Assembly (NCBI RefSeq): GCF_000165425.1
Contig: NW_001799641.1
Location: 439,027 to 503,026, forward strand
DNA from: Paramecium tetraurelia
Taxonomy: Eukaryota; Ciliophora; Oligohymenophorea; Peniculida; Parameciidae
Length of the DNA: 64,000 nucleotides
Reading direction: 5' to 3'
Below the pieces are notes generated by a model that ran no database searches, had not been told where the DNA came from, and saw only the letters and a list, made by a program, of their open reading frames with translations. Shown here one piece after another: positions 46,201 through 61,332 of the stretch. How positions within the stretch are numbered: the stretch's first letter is position 1; the number at the start of each line of letters is the position of its first letter. The position numbers and the translations under genes are program-made.

Positions 46201-49200
46201 TATAAAATCCTTCAAATGTTATGCTTTTCAATGAGGCTGAACAACTTTCAATATATATCAAGGCATTGTCACTGCTTGAAACACCTAATAATTCAGCTCT
46301 GCTTAAGACTCTTACTTTTGTAAAATAGTGTTACCATGCTTCTTCATCTTAAGATACTTTGATATTCTTAAGAAATACTTTATTATTTTAAATAATTTTC
46401 TTAGAAACTTCAATTTATAGGATTTAATGTATCAATGAAAGACAGTTCTAAATCTAGATGTTTTATAAATAAATAGTATTTTGAATATTAGAAGATTAAA
46501 TAGTTAGTATTGAGGAAGACATTCTGTTTAAAATATCATAAAAAGTTGAATTAAGAATTTCAAGATCAAGGAGACTATTTTATGAATATATGCTGATACA
46601 ACCTGAACTATTTGTAATTTAATTTAAATCACTCTAAAGATTACTTGCTGCTATATTCATAAGTCTTACTGATCCTTAAAATTGTGTAATAATCTCAAAA
46701 ATTACACTTTTAAATGCAAGTATATGTTAAAATTGACAATTTTCACACGTAAAATTAGAAGCTATTATCTTAGCTGCTCCTCCAATATTTTTTATAAATA
46801 AAATTTGAGATATGAATGAATTTATTTATTCTTAATCCATAAAACTTTCTAATTCTATATCATAATACTTTTATAATATATCAGAAGATAAAATATTATG
46901 ATGGGACACACTATGATTATGAAACATCAAACTAAATGAGTTTATGTAAATAAACGAATTGGATGAATTTGTTAAGGCATTTAGGCTTGATGATAAATTA
47001 AATATTTCAACACTGCTTCTCTATGAATTAATATATATTTATGATGAATAAGCAAATAATGTATCATCTGTTTATGAATGAAAAATGTTTTCTAAAAACT
47101 AAATATTACAAATTGTAATATCAATAATTCTTTCTGAATCTATAGATAATAGCGAAAAGAATCTTGATGATTATTAGTGTAATTATAAATTTCCTCTGAA
47201 TATAATATCTATAATTTCTATTTTAATATTAATTGAAACGAGTTAAAGTTATTTTGGAGATAACTCTAAAATTGATTCATCAATTGTAAATTAATTTACA
47301 ATCTATACATGTGTGAGTTTAAAAGAAGAAAAGTCAACTACTTTCATTAATTTATTTTTATTCATCATTTAGCTTTTGCAGTTTTAACTTAATTGTACTT
47401 TATATTATTAATCTTGTTGTTCATATATAATATTCTAAATAAGAATTGCGTTACTTTCATAGATATAAAAGATGAAAATATTATTTAAATTATGGATTTT
47501 AATTTCTGATGAAGTAAATTGAAGGCATTTTATAATAAATAAGAATGAACTGAAATCAGAGCTATACTAACTTTTCATTTCTTCAAAGTTTAAATTTTAA
47601 ATTTTCAAAATAATATTACTTGACTCTTGGTCTGAGTATATTCTTAATAAGTTTGAGTTTTTAATTTAAATTTATTTAGTAACAAAATTAATAATATTAA
47701 TGGAAATTTTTTAATTAAAATCTTCTTCGATAATCGAAATTAATTGAGACTCGTAGATATTATTATCCAAAAATGATAGGTATTAAATTGAAAAGTTATA
47801 ATTTTATGTAATGAAACTTGAAGTATGTAATTCATTTGAATATAATTTTATGTCTATCATTGATAAAATTGCATAGTTAAAGCAATTTACAAGACTTGAG
47901 ATATTAAATTAACTTGCCTTTATTGTTACATCCTGAAAAGTAATTTTACTTAATTGATCAAGGGAAGTTTTAATAAAAAATATTGATGAATTTTAAAACT
48001 TACAATCTTCTATTAAGAGATTTCGAACTTGTAAAATAATTTTATTATCAGTGAGTTAAAATAATTTAGAATTTGTCAAAGTACAACCTTTTATTATTAA
48101 TCTATCAATTTTAATTATTCCATTAATTTATGAATTACTTAGGCTTAGAAAAGATGAATTCACTAATATTGAATTAAGGATTGTAACGTTATTAAGTTCT
48201 ACTTGACCAAATGTTTCAATTTAAAATAGAGATTTAGAATTTTGTATGTTACTATCATTAATTGTAAAATTAAACAATTTCAGATCTGTTTAAGTTGAAT
48301 TGTTTAGAATAACAAAATCATCGTTAGCAATTCTCTTTTAAACGATGTTGCTAATAACTAAAGTGTCAACATTTAGAATATATATAGGTGCTGAAGTAGA
48401 AAAAATTAAATCTATTTCTGAAGTTATTATATATTAAACACTATTGAGTGAAAATATTTTAGTTTAAACTGTTGAATCTAACCATATAATAGCAACTTTA
48501 CATGGTATTTGACTTGTAAAAATAAATTTGATAATTAAAGTATCTATTCCAATTTAGTTTAAGTAGTTGATTTTAAATGATAATTCCCAGAATGAATCAA
48601 TCAATTCACAATAATCATAACTAACTTCATGTAAAAAAGTAGAGGAGCACTGTTCATCAAAACAATACCTTGCTATCTACTTATCAAGATCTAGTTAAAT
48701 GTTGGGATCAGATACTGCTTTTAAACATTTTTTAGTATATACCAGATTATCGCTATTCAATAAGAAATTAGGTTAAAAAGTCTAGTTAATAATATAGATA
48801 AATTACATATATTTCGTTTTTTGATCTAATTTGGCACGCTTAACATAAATAAGGGCATTCAGAGCAAGAACCATCTATTTAATCTCTAATTGGCTGATAA
48901 TAATAATTTAATGGGCAATGGTTGCATATAAAACCCTCATGATAATTATAGTCACATGATAAACAATCGGAATCACAATATTTTCTACAAATAAACTCTA
49001 TGAGTTTAAATCCATCTAGACATTCAACTATTTATTCTTACATATCTGTAATTAATTAAGATTGAGGATAAAAATATTGATTGGGCAAAAATTTAGTGAT
49101 GAAACTTTAGATTCTTTAAATCCAGCCATCCTATAATGAATATGAACCTTCTATAACTATTTTTGCTCCTACTATTGTTATTGGATCTGTTAAATAGCAA

Positions 49201-51594
49201 CCTCCATTTTTCATTGAAGCTGTATATCCAACATCACAAACAACACATTTGACTGTAGATTCAAGAGTCAAAATACATTGCAAACAATTAAGTTAGTATT
49301 TTTGGCAATTCATAATTTCCGAAGCTAATTTAAAATCATCTATCATCGATAAAGTGCAGATTTCTTTATTGTCCTTTACAAAAGATCTCTAACAATTTTG
49401 CAACTACGGATGCTAATAGAAACACAGCTGTTTATCGAAATCATAAATATAATTTTCTTCACATAAAGCACAACCAGTAATTATTTCTTGATCCTGCTCT
49501 AAAAATTCAAATCCTCTGTATAATGTGGAAATCCTTATATCATTCTTAACATATTGAAAGCAATATTTGCAAAATTTAATATTGCATACTTCACATTATC
49601 TCCTCAACGTTAAATATAATGGAGGAATGCAATACTCTAATCTATCTTAAGATAAAGAAGTACATACTCCTTCAATCGATATGTAGCCAAAGTAACACTC
49701 TAAGCAAGTATTTCCAAATAGAGTATACAAGCACTTTAAACAGTTTTAAAGTAAACCTAAGCAAAAATAATCTAAAGAAAGAAGCTAAATTTCTGATTCT
49801 TCTATATTATATTCGTTTTGAACAAAAGATTAGGTTTTATTACAATTTTTACAATAAATTGCATCATTTCCATCAAAATGGAAATAAATAGGTGATTAAT
49901 CTGTAAATATTTTTTCAACAGATCCATTCAAATTTAAATACAAATTTCTATCGCATTTAGGATCTTATATCCACCCTTTAGGATTTTATACACATTCTAA
50001 GCAAGTTACTAAGTTCTCTTGTATAATTGATGGGCTATATTATATTTTTAAAAGAATACCATTAATAGCAACTATCAGAATATTCAAAGTATCCATATTG
50101 ACAACTTTGCTTCTTTTCGGCATTATTTACTATTTCTAAATTATGATCATAGTATGATTAACAATCTTGATCATCTATAGTATTGTATGGACATACGCAA
50201 GCTTTAAATTATGCTAAGTAAATTCTATCCGATCCTTTTTTACAGGATAAACAATTATTTTTGTTTGGACCCTCGCAATCCTCGCAAGTGTAATGGCAAT
50301 TTTATTGGTTAACTTAAATGTAGCAATTGTAAAACTTAAAATTTCGTAGTTAGATATTCAAATAATTAGTTTAAGATTACAAATTATTCCCATATTAAAG
50401 TTTAAATTAAGTTTGCTTAAATTAAAATACCTTAATCTAGAAAATATAATCATAAACTTAATGGCCTTCCAAAAATTAAATTTGGATTGTTAATTAATCA
50501 TCCTTTACTTAAACATAAACTTAATGCCAAAGAAATATTGAATTAGAAATATCAAACTCTTTCTTAATCAAAAATGGATTATCAGAAAAATCTATTGTTA
50601 CTTATGGAAATGTATAGCTGTAGGTTGTTACGATTATCTAATTGCCTACAGAGGAAATCTTATAAGATAATGAAAAAGGAGCTAAATTGTAATCTGCTAA
50701 AGAATTTTGAAAATTTGATGCTAAGAATAATAATTAATAAATAAATTCTTCCGATGACTTTACTATTTCAATAATTTTCATCCATCCAGATAAAATAAAT
50801 GAATTACAATTTATATTTTCCGACACAAACACTAAATTATCCAGCTAACTAATATCAACATTACCAATATCAGATTAATAATTATCTTAACAAAGACAAT
50901 TTTAATATAACTCAAAAAATGCTTATTATATTTGTTAATAGTTCTCTGAAAATGAGATATCTACAATTTCAAATTCATACAGGACTATTTTACCTGGAAA
51001 ATATGATATTTTAGTTCCTTATTCTATAAATGAGATTTTTGATTGACCTACTATCATGCTACCACCAAAAGTCAGCAATATATTATTATCATAAAAAGGC
51101 CACTTTATTTATAAATATGAATGGAGTATAGTCTGCTGTTAATACATCAAAATTAGTTCAAATTTTTATTATAATGGCCATTACACAATCATCAAGAAAT
51201 ACCAAGCGTTCTCATAATCAAAAAAATCAATATCCTTACTAAATAAATGTTGTTCTTCATTATTATCAATAAATGCAATAATTTTCGTTATTTTTTTTTA
51301 TTCATAATTTAAGCATTCGTAATACAACAGATTAAGTGACTCAGTATATTGTTCAGATGTACTGTGCAAGAACAAACAATTACTGTCAAATTGTCCAACA
51401 ATTCCAACTTATGGAATGTTAGTTAAGGGATTATATTTCGACCACAATCCATATCGAAATCCATTTGTTATTGTAAAATCATTTTCTGACAGTTTTATCG
51501 ATTACTTGCTGACTTAGTAGGATGAATCTAATTCTCTAATTTTAATTCCTCTTAAGGATAATAGCAAAGATAACTAAAAGATATAAAGAAGCAT
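43270..51594 (-). CDS. giant Cys-rich surface protein with multi-pass C-terminus
   Basis: About 2,700 codons from ATG 51592-51594. The N-terminus MLLYIFQLSLLLSLRG is a signal peptide. An ectodomain of beta-sandwich character is followed by furin/EGF-like Cys repeats at about 50300-48800 (HYTCEDCEGPNKNNC, CLSCKK, QCEVCNIKFCKYC), a very long region at 48700-45000 of short Ile/Asn/Ser-rich repeats like a parallel beta-helix, another Cys block (GALCEECD), and several membrane helices near 44200-43400 (KVIVILVLILLQFCIIIIGY; LWILYLVFPGLMIFGFIIP). The layout matches a family of huge ciliate surface proteins, known by sequence only. A few exon joins were not resolved. Confidence 0.7.
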
Positions 51595-51812
51595 ATAATT
51601 CTTAAACAAAAAAAATTAAATATAAAAATTCAAATATCGAGAAATCCTCAATTAATTATGTCCAAAGAAGGAAAAACCAAAATTGTCATTCTTATAAGAT
51701 CGTATTACAAAAAGAAGTTAGAAAAATGATAGAATAAATGGTTTGAAATTGATTATATTTTAAAATAAAGGTATCAGATAACATTAGCTTGATTTAAACT
51801 TTTATAAAATAT

Positions 51813-52070
51813 TCATTTTTATATTTCATTAACGCACACCTCACCAATAATCTCGGACATTGCAGAGTTTATGTTTTAGTTATACATGGATTCAAAGTCA
51901 ACTCCATTCATTCCTATCTACATTAATGTTTCAAATTGGTATTTAAATTTGTTGTTGAATTTTTGTTGTTCTAATTTTTATTTCTCCTAATTTCCCTAAT
52001 TTGTTTAACTTTTTTTATTTTCATTTTGTTTAGTTTTTGATTCTTTTTCATCTTTACCTTAAGAAAACAT
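51813..52070 (-). CDS. small hypothetical protein
   Basis: Intronless 85-residue frame, ATG 52068-52070 to TGA 51813-51815. Half is polar Lys/Gln/Asn repeats (KESKTKQNENKKSQTN); the C-terminal 40 residues look folded (YQFETLMQIGMNGVDFES). No family recognised. Confidence 0.5.
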
Positions 52071-52354: not shown

Positions 52355-55300
52355 ATGAATTAAGGTTTTCCTTAAATCAGTAACAATGATGCAAAAGAAA
52401 GTCTACAAGGGATTTTTACAAAGATTAAGAATAAGAAATATATTCGTTCTGTGTTTATTCTTAAGGATCTTAAACCTATTATGAATAAATTGGAAAATTA
52501 AGATAAGCAAAAAATAATAGAATATATGTAGAGAGAATTTAGAGATGAGGAATTTCTTTAGCAAAGTGGATATGTAGAACTACCTGATAACAAACAATTG
52601 TATAATAAAGCAAGGATTGAGAAAGATAAATAACTTATATTTTAACAACTCAGAGTTCCTTAGTTTAATATTGATAATGAGATTCATGAATTGATTTCAA
52701 AAAATGAGTAAATAACATGTAGATTAGATGATAAGATTTTTGATTTACTAGATCTAAATGAATTTAGATTAGGCAAAATGTTCTTTCCATAAATTGAACT
52801 ACTTTAAATTTTGATTTCCTTTTTTTTCCATCCTATTATGTAAGAGCCACCTTATCTTTTAGGATAAATCATAGGCTCATAATTAATACCACAAATATAT
52901 TAATTTTAATATTATTTAGAAACAAAATAAAATACTAGTTAGGATTCATACAACAAAATAGTCTAAACATTATAAGATAGACAACTACATATTATATCCA
53001 CAGAAAATTTTGAAAGGGCTATCTCAGAAATGAAAAATTTCAAAATTTTTGCTGTTATTAATTCTCTTATTGAAGATCATTAAGGCTTACAAGAACTTTT
53101 ATTTTAAAAATTATGTAGTTTGCTGAATTGCACTAAATAATAATTGGAAGTTGAATCAATATTATCTCATCTGTTTAATATTGAAAATATTAATGAAGAG
53201 ATTGAAGAGTTGTACTTTAGTATGATATTTTATTTTTGGATGAAATATCTAACTAAATATGATATAGAACAAGGGTTTTCTGATCTAAAACAGATTGACA
53301 TAATGTCAGAAGATACTAAAGAGAGCAGAGAAATGACGATGCAAGTCATTATCTAAGAATAAATTAAATCTTATGTAGATTAAATATTACAACATTTTGT
53401 TTACGTAATGTTTTACTTTTCAAAATAACAGAGTTTAGCCAATTCCGAGGAATATTAAAGATATAAGAAATAAAGTTTAGAATTACAAGAAAAGATTGCT
53501 TCAAATTCTTCTAAATTATCATTTTAAATTTGGTAAGATGTTTCTTAGCTATAATATTGTTAATTGATAAACATTTAAGGATTTGAAAACTAAATAAAGT
53601 TCTTTTGGATGACATAACTAAATTCTGAATTATTCAAAATTATTAATATCTTATTTACATAAGAACAAACTCAAAATTTATTTTAAGCAACTAAATTATT
53701 AGAAGAACAACTCAGAGTAATTAAGTCAAAAAATAAAGATTTGATTATTTAAAATATCTTAATGCTGTTACCTTAAAGCCTATCAAATGTTGAGAAAAAA
53801 TAAAATATTCTATTAATAACATTATATTTAAAATAGAATTCCCTTAATAGACAAGCCTAGGAATTAATCAAGGAGTTATTCCTCTAAACAAACAATAAAA
53901 ATGAAACAGAGTTCATACAATTTTGCGAACGTTTTTATGAATTGGATGAAGAATAGTATGAAATTTGGTTAGAAAGTGTTGAGTTTTTTTAAATTTTTAA
54001 AATAACACCAAAATGTTTAAGACATAAAAAAACCCATAAGCAATTTCCAACTAATTAATAAACAGCTATAGAACAATTCAGTTTTTCAGTTCCAGAAGAA
54101 ACTAATGAGTAATTAGGATTAGCCATTAGTAATTGGGTTAGATGTATGAATGCAAATACTACATATGATTTATTTAATTTTTATTTTGATAGCTTAAAAA
54201 GAGGTGAATCAGTAAATCTTCTAGTTTAACTCATAAATGAAGAAATATTTAATCATTAATCTAAATATGGATTTTTCAATAGCAAAGCTCTTTTTTAGAT
54301 TTTTTATAATAATTCAAATTAAGAATTAAAATTTTTGTTGCTTAAGTACTATTCAAAGTGTAATCCTGTACCCTTCATTTATTAAGCTTCTTAATTTCAT
54401 GGTATTCATAATTTGGAAAGTTTATATGAAATAAATGACAAATTGTATTATTTGATGCAAAAAAGTGTTAATATAATCAATTTTTCGTTAAGCAAGAATT
54501 AAAGTAAAATTGGTAAAACTGAATTGATTAATAAAATTTTCTATAAAACGTAAAAGTTTGAAATCGGAGATAATTGTTTAATTAATGAAAACACAATAGA
54601 TTTAATGTTTGATTTCGAATTCAATGGTACAAGAAAATTTATGATAGCAGATACTCATGGATATATTCCACCTGAAATATTAATAAAAGTATTACCCCTA
54701 TTTCAAATTTGTATTATTCAAATAGACTCAGAAGATAAATTGCAAGAAAATATAGAATCTATTAAATCCCTTTAAATTTTTAATTCTCATAAGATTTGCC
54801 TTCTAATTCGAAATTCAAAAAAAAATAAAATACCTGAATAATTTTAACAAGAATTAATCCAATTAAAAATAAATTTTCATTAGGTTTCCGATCTATCATG
54901 GAGAGGAATAGATAAATAATTACAGTTAAACGAAATTGAAGGTGCCTCAAAATTTGTTTTGTATAACATTTTTTCATTTGACTGTTATCCACACAAGTCT
55001 TAACAATTATATTTGGATATACTATAGAAATTTAATAATAAGTCAAAAGAAAACTCTGAGGTTATTCTTTAAAATATAATAATTTTATAAGAGATGAAGT
55101 CAGAATTATAAAAATTAATTAAATTACCTGATGGATTTTATGCTTTAGAAGCCTTTTCATTGCGTCACTCTCATTATCACTACAAAATCTTAAAATAAAA
55201 ATTGATTGAAAAGTCACTAGAGCCAAATAGTGATCAAGCCAAAATAAAGCAGTTAAGAGATGATATTGAAGAAAACTTAATGTTTAAAAAATATAAGGTT

Positions 55301-58300
55301 CCAACAAAATTACTCAATTTATTTTAACAAGTCTTAATGCAAGATCATATGTAGTATTTATGGTTTCTTGAAAAATTGAGGTAATTTAATGAGAAAAATA
55401 CATAGAAATTAAATGAAGGGAATTAAAATCCAATGATGAGGAGTGCATCATCGTTAAGAAGTACAAGTCAAGGCTAATAACAGATTTTATCTTCAGATAT
55501 TAATTTATAAGTATCAGATGTGTAAGATTAGATAAAGCATATAGAAAATGAATTAAAATTTAATAAAATTGGTATAGAGATCTTTTGGAGAGAACTGATA
55601 TAATTTGGAAGTCTAGAAAGATAATTATCAATAAATCCTATTGAAGCACTTTGTTAAATTATCAGAAAAGGGGAACCTTTTGAACTTTTGGATGGAGATT
55701 CCTAAACAATTGACAAAGAAATTTTGTTAAAAATAATATAAAAGCTCCATTAAGATAAGAATGAAAAAGTATTAGTCTTAAGTGTCTTAGGACCTTAAAG
55801 TTCAGGTAAATCCACTTTATTGAATAATTTATTTGGATGCCATTTTTGGACAAGTGTTGGTAGATGCACAAGAGGAGTTCATATGCAATTAATAAAAGTG
55901 AGAAATAAAGAAAAATTTGGAGGATTATTTAATCAAATTCTTCTTTTGGATACTGAAGGTCTTTAAAGTCCAAATTAAACAGATGTTGAATTTGATTAAA
56001 AAATGTCCTTGTTTATTTTAGCTATCAGTGATATCATTCTGATAACTGTTAAAGGTGATATCAACTTATAATTCCATAATCTTATTGAAGTGTGTTTATT
56101 TCAATATAGCTAATTAATATAAAATCTCTCAGGAGTTAAATAAATTGTATGGTGTTTTAACCAAAATAACGACGTTTAAAAGAAAGGGCCTTTTTTTGAA
56201 TAAATTCAATAGTTGGTTATGAGAGTGGAATAGAGAAATTAGCAACCAAGTTAATCTGATCCAGAGATCAAAGAATAATATAATGAATAAATTGATTATG
56301 CAAGGATTATTGATATTGATACAAAACATATATGGGTTTTGGGATTTGCTTAAATTCAGAATATTTGGGATTTTCAAAAGTGGACTTAATCAAGCCTTAA
56401 TGAAACTTTTTCTAAAAATGCTTATTACAATGGAATAATGATGCTTAATAATTATGTAGAAAAATTTTAATTCTAGAATGAAATTGGTTAACTTTAAACT
56501 CTCTCTTAAGTTTTATCAGCGATTGATGGAACTTGGAACAATATTCAAAAATTACCGGACTATATAGAGTTTTCAGAATTACTTCAATATGACTAAAACA
56601 AAGACATGAAAATTGAATACTAAAAGATCTTTAAAATTAAAAGTGCTGAGTTTGATTTCAAAAATCAAATTAGAATTTAAATTTAGGAGGAAGCTCTAAA
56701 AAATAAACCATCTGAAGAATTTTTTATTTAATTAAAGGAAAAAAAAATTGATGATATTAATAATAAACTAAAAACTATTTAAGAATCAATCAGTGAGGAA
56801 CTTCAAAAATTTAGGTAAACTAAGAAGATTTCTAAAAATATTTATTTAAAATAATTAGAATAGCTAGATAGATAATTTTAAAATGAAAGATTGGTATGTA
56901 ATCTAATAATTACAGAATCAATCCTTTCTCAAAAAATTAAATATGATTAAGATTCAAGTTTATAAAACTTAGAAAAGGCTTTTAGAACTTCATATGACAA
57001 TTAGAGATACATGCAGCTGGATTAAGATCAAATCTTGGAGTAATTTAATCAAGAGTGGGAAAATATTTTAGAATAATTTTCCAAGACTTTAAATTCTTAA
57101 TTTGATAAATTTTAAACAATGCAATATGAGACAATTAAAGGACATTATAATGACTTTATTATTAAATCAAGTCTGGAATCTGAATATCTAAATTTGTTAA
57201 GATATCAGATAAATAATACTCAACCATCAAAATCTAATTAGGAATTTTAGTAATTGTTTTAGAAGTATCTTGAGGAGTTACAGGAAAATTAATTTAGGCC
57301 TATCCTTAAAGCAGATTAAGAATTTTTTCATATCTATGATAAGCCAATAAAAGATAAAATTTAAGAATTTGAGGAAACAAATTGTATTAATTTTCTAAAA
57401 TTTTATACATGCTAAATATAAGTTGAATATATAGCAAAAAATGAGATTAAAATATATTTAGATAATCATATCATCGATGATTTTGAATACTTATTGAAAG
57501 TTAATTAAGACAATTTTGAAGACATCTTACAAGATAATTAAAACAAAGATATAAATACATATTTTTTTTAAACCTTTTTCGATTATTTTCAGTTAGAATA
57601 TGATATTTAATTGATTGGATAAAATGCCTTCTGAAAACTAAAAATGATTATTTCTGAAGAATCTGAACAAAGTAAATGAAATTACATATAAATACCTGAT
57701 AAACTAGGTAAAAAAAGTAATTTTAAAAACTTTCCAAGAAATAATTACAAAACTCTAAAAATTGAAGAATCTTTAGCAACAGTCTCTATGCTCTTAAGTA
57801 AAAGGGATTTTAGATTAAATTTAATAAATAGGCTAAATTGTTTCTGAAAAAATAGAGTATGAATACAATAACAAAGATTATAATTAATATGAAGTTTACA
57901 TTAATATGACAAAAGATCTGGATTCAAAATAATTATATTCGAATTTGAATCAGTTTAGTAAAATATTTACAAATTTAATGGAGAAAGAAAAGGGTTGGGA
58001 GAGATTATATATGGAAGTTTATCAACTTCGTTTATTAAGAAATGGGTGTTGATATAATAATGTTGTCATAAAACTAATAATTAATAAAAAGAAGTTTCAT
58101 TGTTATGATATGTAGAAAATAAATATGATTAAGTCTTAGAAATTGAAAGTAAAATCTAATTCAAGGCTAGATTTAATAAGTCCATGATTTCATACTTTGG
58201 ATTAATATGTAACTAAATTAGGAGAGAGATGCATAATATATTTTGGTTTATTAATTATTTGGAGATTTATATGTTTTTCTTAATGGTAATCTGTAAATAA

Positions 58301-59969
58301 AATTATAGATTAATTGAAATAAAAGAAATTGGATCTATTAGAAAAGTTTTTTGCTTATCTTCAAAAAAATGACTATAAATTAAGTAGGATTTAAGCAAGT
58401 GAATTATTTGAAACAATTAAGAGGAATTTTGAATTACAATTTTATAATAAATATACTCCTCAAATTGTAGAAGAGATTTAAAATTAATAATGTGATCTAG
58501 AATAATAGTTCTTAGAATCAGACGATAAAGAATTTATAATAAATTATATAATAGATTAAAAAAATGTAATAAACAATCATGTGGACAAAAAATTAGATGA
58601 GTTAACAATAAGGTTGGAGGAGGATTTTTAATTTGAATTAGCTGAGCAATACTAAGAACTAATTGAAAAATTAAAGAAAAACGCTCATTTGTTAAAAGAA
58701 TATCTAGTGCCTAACCTAAATGTTGAAGAATACTTTGAGAACCCATAACAAGATTTAGAGAGAAAATTGTTTGGAATTGTAGTTTGTTTTCTTTAGGGAA
58801 GTAATTCTAGAGACATAAATTTAATAAATAAAAAATACAAATTTATATTTTATTAAGGTGAAAAAGTGAAAGTGGAATTCCATTTGAACAATCTACAGAA
58901 TCCGGAAATTAAATTATTAGATGTTTTTGTTGAGGAGTTAATTGAAATTTTGAACCAAAAAAAAAATATAAAAATATAACTTAACTTTAATCTATTCAAA
59001 ATGTAAGAATAATTATTCAAAAAAAAAATAGAAATGTAAGGATGTCAAACTTCTTGTGGTTTTTGCAATAGAAAATGTGATTTACAGTAGGAGCATCAAT
59101 CAAATCATGAATGCTAAAATGGACATTTTTTAATAGGTATAAATATTTAATTTATCATAATAAGTGAATTTGGAGAAATAAAAATAATAATATTCATGTG
59201 ATGATGATTTTTTTTTTTTAAGGCGAGTTGAAAATTTTGAATGGGATTTCGATCCAAAATAAAATATCGATCAAAAAAAATAATTAAAAGACAAATTAAT
59301 AAAAATTTGGTAAGAATATGGTCAGGATATCTGTAATAAATTACAAAAATCTTACTAAAACATATAATAATTGAATCATAATAGAGTTCACTATATTTTC
59401 ATTTTGGATAGTTCAGAGTCTATGAATAAGGATTGGACTGATATTAAAAAAGGAGTTCGAGAGTTCATAAAAAAAATCAAGGAGAAAGATTAGGTTGAAA
59501 ATAAAGAATTTTGGATAAGTCTCATCCTTTTTAACAAAGAATAGACTACACTTATAAATAGTAAAAGGGCTAGGGATATAAAAACAAAATTTAAAATGAA
59601 CTTTTTAGGGGGAGGAACAAACTTTGGGAAACCAATCAAGAAAGCCATAAATCTAGTTAAAAAAGACAATACCTCTGATCTGTATAAATTTATAAATATC
59701 AAAGATTCTTAATATTATTCTACACTGATGGAAAAGCTGCTATTCCAGAATAAGAACTTAAAAAGATGTAGAACCTAGAGGAAGAAAAAAGAAAAAAAAT
59801 ACATTTAATAGCCTGTACGCATGATTCTAACACTTAAAATAAAGTTCTTAATAACATGGTTAAATATTTTAGTGATCATATCAAATAAGCAGAAATTTTT
59901 ACTTTTTCTTCGGCAAATGTTTTGATTGGCTTTTGGTCTGTAGTTATAAATTTTAGATTGAATAGATGA
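52355..59969 (+). CDS. very large GTPase fused to Cys/His module and VWA domain
   Basis: About 2,500 codons. The 1,130-residue N-terminal part is helical. The GTPase has VLSVLGPQSSGKSTLLNNLF (P-loop, about 55785-55830), GRCTRGVHMQL (switch I), LLLDTEGLQS (G3) and VWCFNQNND at the G4 position, a GBP/VLIG/atlastin-like set. Long coiled coil follows, then GCQTSCGFCNRKCDLQQEHQ with further Cys/His (about 59040), and a C-terminal VWA domain beginning HYIFILDSSESM (MIDAS DxSxS intact) to LFYTDGKAAIPEQ. Two introns near the end (28 and 23 bases) end in AAG. Frame is broken around 57.63-57.67 kb and unclear at 58.05-58.3 kb. One gene or two is not settled, but frame continuity favours one. Confidence 0.7.
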
Positions 59970-60627
59970 CTATAAGTGATAATTATATTTAAATTAATAA
60001 TCTTAGTGAAAATTTATAATTTCTATATGCTTTGGGAAAACCACTTAGACAAGCCAAAAACATTCATCATAAATCCCAATTGATATTAAGTAGTACGAGT
60101 AGGTACCTTAAGTATTCTATTTTTTATTCTCTTAACATAAATTAAATTAAATATTTTTTAAATTATAAAATTTATTCATAGTATATATATAATATTATTA
60201 TAATAATCGCTAAATACATTATTTATATTCATAAATTTTTAATCATATATTTTTGAATAATTTGATAATCATTAATTATAGGCATTTAATATTACGAGCT
60301 CTAATTTGGAATAAGATTCTTAAACAGAATTATTAATTTAAAAATTGTTTTATAATCAATATGATTGCTGATATTCTTAATAGTCTATGTGGTTCTTCAA
60401 TTTTAACATCAAAACAATAATTTCTAATTTTATATTTAGAGATATTGAAAAATAAATTCAATAATTAATGAATAAATTTTCTGTCATATAAAAACAGCCA
60501 AAAGCGAAGAAAAAGGATTCTGATTAATGTGTTTAAATATATATAAGTTATGTTAGTTAAATAATGTCAATAAATGAGTCATTATAATTAATTAAGTAAC
60601 TTAAAATTAATTGTCAGAGTTATAATA
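59970..60627. other. AT-rich intergenic stretch
   Basis: About 660 bases with no supportable frame or repeat. Confidence 0.4.
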
Positions 60628-61332
60628 ATGGGGATAACTTGCTCATCTTAACGAAAACTAACATCATAGGTCGGTTTCCAAAACTAAAATTCTAATGAAT
60701 AAAATGGAAAATGTAAAAATATTTAATAAAAAAATGAAAACGATTAAAAGATGTCCATTAGCAATGGGATTTCTTATTTCTTAAGAAGAATAGATTAATT
60801 TAATAAGTCAGATCAACCACATGAAACAAAATAACTAATTTCATTCTTTGAAAAATAGAAGTAATGGTTAGAATGGAAATTAGAATGTGATATTGCCTTC
60901 ATAATTGATTTAACAACAAAAAATGACAAAAAAAGGATTAGATTATTAAAGGAACTATTAGCAGATAAGGAGAGGCATTAATCTAGATTCGGAATTATAT
61001 ATCTCGGAAATGATAAAGCTTAATTCGATTTAATAGATGACTCCTAAGAAACAACTTACAATCTGTAAAAATAATTATAAAATCTGAAATTGGATGACTG
61101 GATAAACATTTTTAAGGCTCTTAGAGCACATATAATTTTCAATAAAGAGTAAATCTTACCTTCAATTTATATTTTGAGTGAAAATTAATAATCCTAAAAT
61201 GATGATTCGATACTAGAAGTTGTTGATAATTTATTAGAGGATACTTGTTAGAAGCATTCTCTTAATTTCCATTGTAATAGTTACAAGTTAGAAGATAAAG
61301 AGTTTTATAGCGAATAGGAACTAAAATTATGA
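60628..61332 (+). CDS. small VWA-like protein with acylation-type N-terminus
   Basis: Intronless 234 residues, ATG 60628 to TGA 61330-61332. The N-terminus MGITCSSQRK suits myristoylation and palmitoylation. After an Asn/Gln-rich linker comes a Rossmann/VWA-like pattern: CDIAFIIDLTTKND (strand 1 with DxT), an amphipathic helix, SRFGIIYLGND, WINIFKALRAHIIF, PSIYILSEN, and NLLEDTCQKHSLNFHC. The MIDAS is at best partial (D-x-T without the later Thr/Asp). It sits on the same strand 660 bases after the GTPase-VWA gene, which also ends in VWA. The VWA call is by pattern only. Confidence 0.55.

What the first reader, a model, noticed from the sequence alone, without database searches (positions are those of the whole stretch)
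52355..59969. Very large GTPase joined to a Cys/His module and a VWA domain
VLIG/GBP-type GTPases are known in immune defence and membrane remodelling. Here one is preceded by more than 1,100 residues and followed by coiled coil, a compact Cys/His cluster and a VWA with an intact MIDAS. This fusion could be an undescribed ciliate system linking GTP-driven assembly with metal-dependent adhesion or ubiquitin-like control.
Basis: partly seen in the sequence, partly recalled or inferred. Interest (0 to 1): 0.75.

Follow-up and report, generated by a model that had tools for sequence, protein, structure and literature searches.

The report
Giant GTPase–zinc–VWA family in ciliate
This stretch of a ciliate genome holds one copy, probably damaged, of a multi-copy family of giant VLIG-type GTPases that end in a zinc-finger-like cluster and a VWA domain, a domain order we did not find described in the papers searched.

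Summary
Confirmed in outline. A 1,759-codon frame (52355-57634, TAA/TAG = Gln) carries a URGCP/VLIG-type GTPase domain (Pfam PF25683, 2.8e-36) with intact GxxxxGKS and DTEGL motifs, and a degenerate G-like domain upstream. Downstream lie a C-x3-C-x2-C-x3-C...H-x-C-x2-GH cluster and a VWA with a full MIDAS, once a conserved 23-nt intron is removed. The fusion is real: 8 of the 11 GTPase-bearing loci found in this genome have the same order. In two paralogues GTPase and Cys/His share one uninterrupted frame (in a third the GTPase is degenerate); in another locus Cys/His and VWA share one. Two tiny introns recur at the same places. In one paralogue pair every module shows fewer amino-acid than silent changes per site. 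Two further loci carry Cys/His-VWA without the GTPase. The window's own copy is probably broken: between 57.6 and 58.22 kb it needs three single-base shifts and crosses a TGA; three held-out paralogues need neither. Most likely role: GTP-driven self-assembly with a target-binding tail. Defence is plausible by analogy with human GVIN1 but untested; ubiquitin-like control has no support. A new domain variant of a known GTPase family.

The parts
52355..57634 (+). First open frame, 1,759 codons from ATG to TGA (ciliate code 6): N-region, degenerate G-like domain, GTPase, helical-looking stretch
   Evidence: chance of no TGA about 6e-16
54392..55054 (+). First, degenerate G-like domain (residues 680-900; IGKT P-loop remnant, ADxHG remnant), conserved in the 8 other family loci aligned
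   Evidence: alignment A2; single-sequence AlphaFold2 model, pLDDT 49.9, with the strand/helix order of a G domain; Foldseek best hit Rab6A E 1.9e-4, TM 0.31, rmsd 10.1: weak support only
55367..56329 (+). URGCP/VLIG-type GTPase domain (residues 1005-1325)
   Evidence: Pfam PF25683 125.6 bits, cut-off 55
55790..55813 (+). G1/P-loop GPQSSGKS
   Evidence: alignments
55949..55963 (+). G3 motif DTEGL
   Evidence: alignments
57595..58222 (+). Disrupted zone: TGA at 57632, 57645, 58050 and 58185 in the relevant frames and three single-base frame changes relative to paralogues
   Evidence: stops; protein-to-DNA alignment with held-out controls
58188..59136 (+). Stretch leading into, and including, the Cys/His cluster
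   Evidence: paralogue alignment A3
59043..59126 (+). Cys/His cluster CQTSCGFCNRKCDLQQEHQSNHECQNGH (putative zinc binding)
   Evidence: motif at 10 of 13 distinct family loci scanned, window included (not matched in the stretches held of C175, C162 and C160b); GC, C, C, RKCD, H, C, GH invariant in 7 aligned
59137..59164 (+). 28-nt intron, GTA...AAG, between Cys/His and VWA; a 25-nt alternative at 59198-59222 also keeps the frame open
   Evidence: same place holds a 22-25-nt intron in 8 of 9 paralogues, none in C56 (that script did not pick the 28-nt segment in the window).; choice made because the place is conserved and it keeps the CDD that matches CDE/CEE of the paralogues
59165..59681 (+). 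Exon with the first part of the VWA domain; MIDAS DSSES at 59407-59421, GGGTNF at 59608
59682..59704 (+). 23-nt intron, GTA...AAG, inside the VWA domain
   Evidence: frame-consistent 17-28-nt GT...AG segment at the same place in 9 of 9 paralogues, GTA...AG in 8 of them; splicing extends the VWA match
59705..59939 (+). Exon with the second part of the VWA domain; MIDAS aspartate in YTDG at 59721-59732
59940..59956 (+). Possible third intron (GTAGTTATAAATTTTAG; a 26-nt alternative ends at 59965); without it the frame stops at 59969
   Evidence: weak

Best explanation
The finding is one copy of a multi-gene family of VLIG/URGCP-type giant GTPases in a ciliate. The typical family protein has an N-terminal region, a degenerate G-like domain, a catalytic-looking large GTPase domain, a long helical-looking part, a Cys/His (probably zinc-binding) cluster and a C-terminal VWA with a MIDAS. 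Shown: the domain order, its recurrence, the conserved introns, an excess of silent changes in every module of one paralogue pair, and the G1, G3 and MIDAS residues. Inferred: the two G domains dimerise or polymerise on GTP, as in the GBP/GVIN group; the helical part acts as a stalk; and the Cys/His-VWA tail binds a partner or surface through a metal ion, so that GTP hydrolysis assembles a coat on a membrane or an intracellular microbe. The copy in this window is probably not functional as one protein: it is interrupted between the GTPase half and the Cys/His-VWA half.
For: PF25683 125.6 bits against cut-off 55; 9 of 17 matches in the genome over that cut-off, each at a different family locus. 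Full order at 8 of 11 GTPase-bearing loci. One-frame links: C180a 1,407 codons and C160a 1,236 codons from GTPase to Cys/His, C168 2,256 codons from N-region to Cys/His with a degenerate GTPase; C56 512 codons from Cys/His into VWA. Introns at the same two places. pN/pS between C180a and C180b: first G-like 0.17, GTPase 0.14, helical 0.35, stretch before the cluster 0.35, Cys/His 0.07 (31 codons), VWA exons 0.37 and 0.20; off-frame control for one VWA exon 0.87 and 0.61. Window copy disrupted: three single-base shifts, one TGA and one weak intron, against no event in held-out C13 and C14 and one intron-like gap in C39. Human GVIN1, with two LG domains in its AlphaFold3 model, coats cytosolic bacteria (PMC11974893, passages).
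Against: No transcript or protein data. The first G-like domain is not matched by PF25496 (the control rang nowhere) and its model is of low confidence. The Cys/His cluster has no Pfam match over cut-off (only zf-C2HC_2, E 0.29, 11.3 bits against 27, in C69) and no solved relative. C168 keeps its open frame although its P-loop lacks the lysine (GSGSGNS), so GTP hydrolysis is not needed by every copy. Other copies also change frame: C180a and C160a between N-region and GTPase, C180b once before the cluster; whether these are introns or lesions was not settled, so no locus was shown to encode the whole protein without unexplained frame changes. The frame changes in the window could be assembly errors.
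Confidence: 0.6

Rival explanations
1. The window copy is intact in the cell and the interruptions are assembly errors or unrecognised introns, so one protein of well over 2,000 residues is made.
For: The 1,759-codon frame and the Cys/His-VWA exons are otherwise free of TGA, and the lesions fall in about 600 bases.
Against: An aligner that allowed 17-45-nt GT-AG introns still needed three one-base shifts and a TGA, while three held-out paralogues needed neither.
Confidence: 0.25
2. Two separate genes in the window: a GTPase gene ending at 57634 and a downstream Cys/His-VWA gene.
For: A TGA ends the first frame at 57632. Cys/His-VWA exists without a GTPase match at C56 and C69.
Against: After the last TGA at 58185 the downstream frame has no methionine until just before the Cys/His cluster; 8 of 11 GTPase-bearing loci have the fused order.
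Confidence: 0.15
3. The family serves ordinary membrane or cytoskeletal work (for example trafficking or cortex assembly) and has no defence role.
For: Large GTPases of the GBP/atlastin/SEY1 group include membrane-fusion proteins (recalled); the profile's best solved relative is SEY1, E 1.1e-9.
Against: A multi-copy family with decaying copies (a 94.5-95%-identical pair on C160 with single-base indels) fits birth-and-death evolution better than housekeeping; only suggestive.
Confidence: 0.35

Closest known systems
Vertebrate VLIG/GVIN giant GTPases and URGCP (Pfam PF25683 URGCP_GTPase)
   Same: GTPase domain over the curated cut-off, including the stretch before the P-loop (profile 39-375 of 396); very large size; a second G-like domain upstream, as the AlphaFold3 model of human GVIN1 has two LG domains (PMC11974893, passages)
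   Different: C-terminal VWA; found here in a ciliate; first G-like domain not matched by PF25496. Whether vertebrate members carry a similar C-terminal Cys/His cluster or lack a VWA is recalled only and was not tested
Guanylate-binding proteins and SEY1/RHD3/atlastin GTPases
   Same: Large GTPase domain: profile matches SEY1 E 1.1e-9, GBP2 0.017, GBP5 0.059; RHD3_GTPase 43.2 bits, cut-off 42.4
   Different: Far weaker than the URGCP match; seven other loci of this genome give only sub-cut-off URGCP matches and may belong to that group (not followed up)
cpRAS-VWA proteins (circularly permuted RAS GTPase with possible zinc finger and VWA; PMC2430557, passages)
   Same: A GTPase, a possible four-cysteine zinc finger and a VWA in one protein; the paper also mentions relatives of the VWA half without the GTPase, in ciliates too, and a larger paralogous VWA family in Tetrahymena and Paramecium
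   Different: Different GTPase class, about 840-970 residues; here a large, non-permuted VLIG-type GTPase. Whether the Cys/His clusters or VWAs are related was not tested

Membership tests
VLIG/URGCP giant GTPases | URGCP_GTPase domain over Pfam's curated cut-off | tested here: met
   125.6 bits, cut-off 55; 9 loci of the genome over the cut-off
VLIG/URGCP giant GTPases | N-terminal URGCP domain (PF25496) | tested here: inconclusive
   no match at E 10 in the genome, but the control rang nowhere either; not among the matches at E 10 of 8 members. Absence by sequence only, at low sensitivity
VLIG/URGCP giant GTPases | Two G domains in one chain | tested here: inconclusive
   conserved IGKT...ADxHG stretch; G-domain strand/helix order in a low-confidence model
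VLIG/URGCP giant GTPases | Interferon induction and coating of bacteria | not testable with these tools
   no expression data; reported for human GVIN1 in PMC11974893 (passages)
VWA domain | VWA match over cut-off and MIDAS DxSxS...T...D | tested here: met
   45.1 bits, cut-off 23.8 on the spliced product; DSSES, GGGTNF, YTDG
cpRAS-VWA | Circularly permuted RAS-type GTPase (G3-G4-G5-G1-G2) | tested here: not met
   order is G1 then G3 in the alignment; match is to URGCP_GTPase
Ubiquitin ligase (RING/U-box) | RING, U-box or other ligase family match | tested here: not met
   no such Pfam family among the matches

The most novel reading that the evidence does not exclude
Ciliates own an expanded, fast-turning-over family of VLIG giant GTPases that act as cell-autonomous defence: GTP-driven coats whose exchangeable Cys/His-VWA tail recognises intracellular bacteria or viruses, making this defence older than vertebrates and interferon.
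Probability: 0.15. Interest if true: 0.85.

Novelty: new variant of a known kind. Interest (0 to 1): 0.45.

Why it matters
VLIG/GVIN giant GTPases are studied as vertebrate interferon effectors, and human GVIN1 was reported only in 2025 to coat bacteria (PMC11974893, passages). A ciliate family with about a dozen members, a second G-like domain and a MIDAS-bearing VWA tail would give a tractable unicellular host in which to ask what such GTPases did before interferon, and whether their tails choose the target.

Tried and rejected
A simple coding-score gene model stopped at the TGA at 57632 and gave nothing further. PF25496 was not found; PF25974 is not in the library. AlphaFold2 on the GTPase from one sequence was useless, pLDDT 34.1. 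No relative in viral contigs. The Cys/His profile found no solved structure (best E 0.18). One search's script did not pick the 28-nt intron in the window (its best there was a 39-nt segment with a negative score; it scored without gaps); one search then listed two frame-consistent candidates. Longer introns (67-68 nt) and TA-bounded internal eliminated sequences were considered by eye only for the break zone and dropped. Papers: searches showed no description of a VLIG GTPase joined to a VWA in the listings seen; several listings were cut (20 of 48, 15 of 24,462, 10 of 23), and only open-licence papers are held. Passages of three papers were read, none whole. That such proteins may already sit unnamed in protein databases could not be checked. 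Resemblance of the Cys/His cluster to vertebrate GVIN C-termini and to fungal VWA proteins is recalled and untested.

Full report
The genome. The window is contig C222:439027-503026 of a 69-Mb, 231-contig assembly with no held relatives. TAA and TAG read as glutamine, and the introns found at two conserved places are mostly 22-28 nt long and GTA...AG. This is typical of Paramecium-like ciliates (recalled, not tested).

The observation. A 1,759-codon frame runs from ATG 52355 to TGA 57632-57634. Its chance of being free of TGA is about 6e-16 at this base composition. Pfam gives URGCP_GTPase with 125.6 bits (cut-off 55) at residues 1005-1325, and the motifs GPQSSGKS and DTEGL are present. About 250-450 residues before the P-loop lies a stretch conserved in the 8 other family loci aligned, with a P-loop remnant (IGKT) and an ADxHG remnant. 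AlphaFold2 from the single sequence gave a low-confidence model (pLDDT 49.9), but with the strand and helix order of a G domain. Foldseek put Rab6A first, E 1.9e-4, TM 0.31, rmsd 10.1. PF25496 was not found. I therefore call it a degenerate G-like domain with moderate confidence.

The tail. Downstream come a helical-looking stretch (coiled coil not tested), a Cys/His cluster (59043-59126) and a VWA. In 7 aligned members the residues GC, C, C, RKCD, H, C and GH of the cluster are invariant. No Pfam family matches it over cut-off; zf-C2HC_2 appears at E 0.29 in the C69 member. No solved structure matches. The VWA's first half matches PF00092 at 31.9 bits over profile positions 3-96. The frame then shifts. 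Removing a 23-nt segment (59682-59704) joins it to LILFYTDG and raises the match to 45.1 bits over 3-152. At this place 9 of 9 paralogues have a frame-consistent GT...AG segment of 17-28 nt; in 8 of them it is GTA...AG, in C180a GTT...TAG; in C13 its length is a multiple of three, so the frame does not test it there. Between Cys/His and VWA, 8 of 9 paralogues have a 22-25-nt intron directly after the cluster and C56 has none. In the window two segments keep the frame open, 59137-59164 (28 nt, at the conserved place) and 59198-59222 (25 nt, GTG...AAG); I take the first.

Is the fusion real? Own-genome searches with the GTPase half, the helical-Cys/His part and the VWA (lower bounds by the tool's own statement) and the fetched loci give 11 loci with GTPase-half matches. 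Eight have the whole order: C222 (window), C180 twice, C168, C160a, C39, C14, C13. C162 is cut by the end of its contig. C160b shows no tail in the 5 kb fetched beyond its GTPase match (L060). C175 has the helical part, but no Cys/His motif match and no VWA match in what was held. C56 and C69 have Cys/His-VWA without a GTPase match. Single frames link GTPase and Cys/His in C180a (1,407 codons) and C160a (1,236 codons), and N-region to Cys/His in C168 (2,256 codons, GTPase degenerate); Cys/His and VWA are in one frame in C56 (512 codons). Together these make a chance neighbourhood of two genes very unlikely as the explanation for the family. Against this: C180a and C160a change frame between N-region and GTPase, and C180b once before the cluster; I did not settle whether these are introns or lesions.

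Selection. Between C180a and C180b (about 79-81% identical DNA) pN/pS on single-change codons is 0.17 (first G-like), 0.14 (GTPase), 0.35 (helical), 0.35 (stretch before the cluster), 0.07 (Cys/His, 31 codons only), 0.37 and 0.20 (VWA exons). The off-frame control, run on one VWA exon only, gives 0.87 and 0.61. These are simple counts without correction for multiple hits.

The window's own copy. A protein-to-DNA alignment that allows GT-AG introns of 17-45 nt and single-base shifts needs, in the window, shifts near 57614, 58029 and 58220, a TGA at 57645 and one weak intron. The same procedure on three paralogues left out of the profile needs no shift and no TGA (C13 and C14: no event; C39: one 36-nt intron-like gap). 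The copy is therefore probably broken, or the assembly is wrong there. Copies differ elsewhere too: C160a and C160b are 94.5-95% identical with several single-base indels, and C168 has lost the P-loop lysine in an otherwise open frame.

What it is like. By sequence the GTPase belongs to the URGCP/VLIG group; SEY1 and GBP are more distant. The bioRxiv paper on human GVIN1 (PMC11974893, passages read) reports two LG domains in the predicted structure, predicted dimerisation through them, and a coat around cytosolic Burkholderia thailandensis. I infer for the ciliate family GTP-driven assembly with a target-binding, metal-dependent tail. Defence is one possible use; nothing here tests it. Ubiquitin-like control has no support.

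Literature. Eight searches (listings, some cut) showed no VLIG-VWA protein. The cpRAS paper (PMC2430557, passages) describes a different GTPase joined to a possible zinc finger and a VWA, and mentions VWA families in Tetrahymena and Paramecium. The Gene deFuser paper (PMC3143110, one passage) lists a Tetrahymena fusion of a guanylate-binding protein with a vesicle-tethering protein, not with a VWA.

Noticed in passing
G000 contigs C180 (both ends), C39, C14, C162, C56: Six of 13 family loci lie within about 15 kb of a contig end, more than the roughly 1.3 expected (own arithmetic from coordinates and contig lengths). The end of C162 shows no telomere repeat, so assembly breaks in repeats are as likely as subtelomeric placement.
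   Followed up: partly
L046 (C168) 2.9-3.8 kb: Paralogue with an open 2,256-codon frame but a P-loop without lysine (GSGSGNS): a likely pseudo-GTPase kept in the family.
   Followed up: partly
L058 (C69) and L057 (C56): Cys/His-VWA loci without any GTPase match; C69 has a 1,031-codon frame that runs into the cluster.
   Followed up: partly
window 60529-61332: Frame just downstream with DIAFIIDLTTKND, which looks by eye like a VWA start with a lost MIDAS; Pfam gives no support.
   Followed up: partly
window 48708-51816, minus strand: Cysteine-rich frames with repeated C-x2-C pairs upstream of the gene, of the kind seen in ciliate surface or secreted proteins (recalled).
   Followed up: no
C108, C217, C182, C191, C207, C17, C206: Seven weaker GTPase matches below the URGCP cut-off, perhaps GBP or SEY1-like genes.
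   Followed up: no
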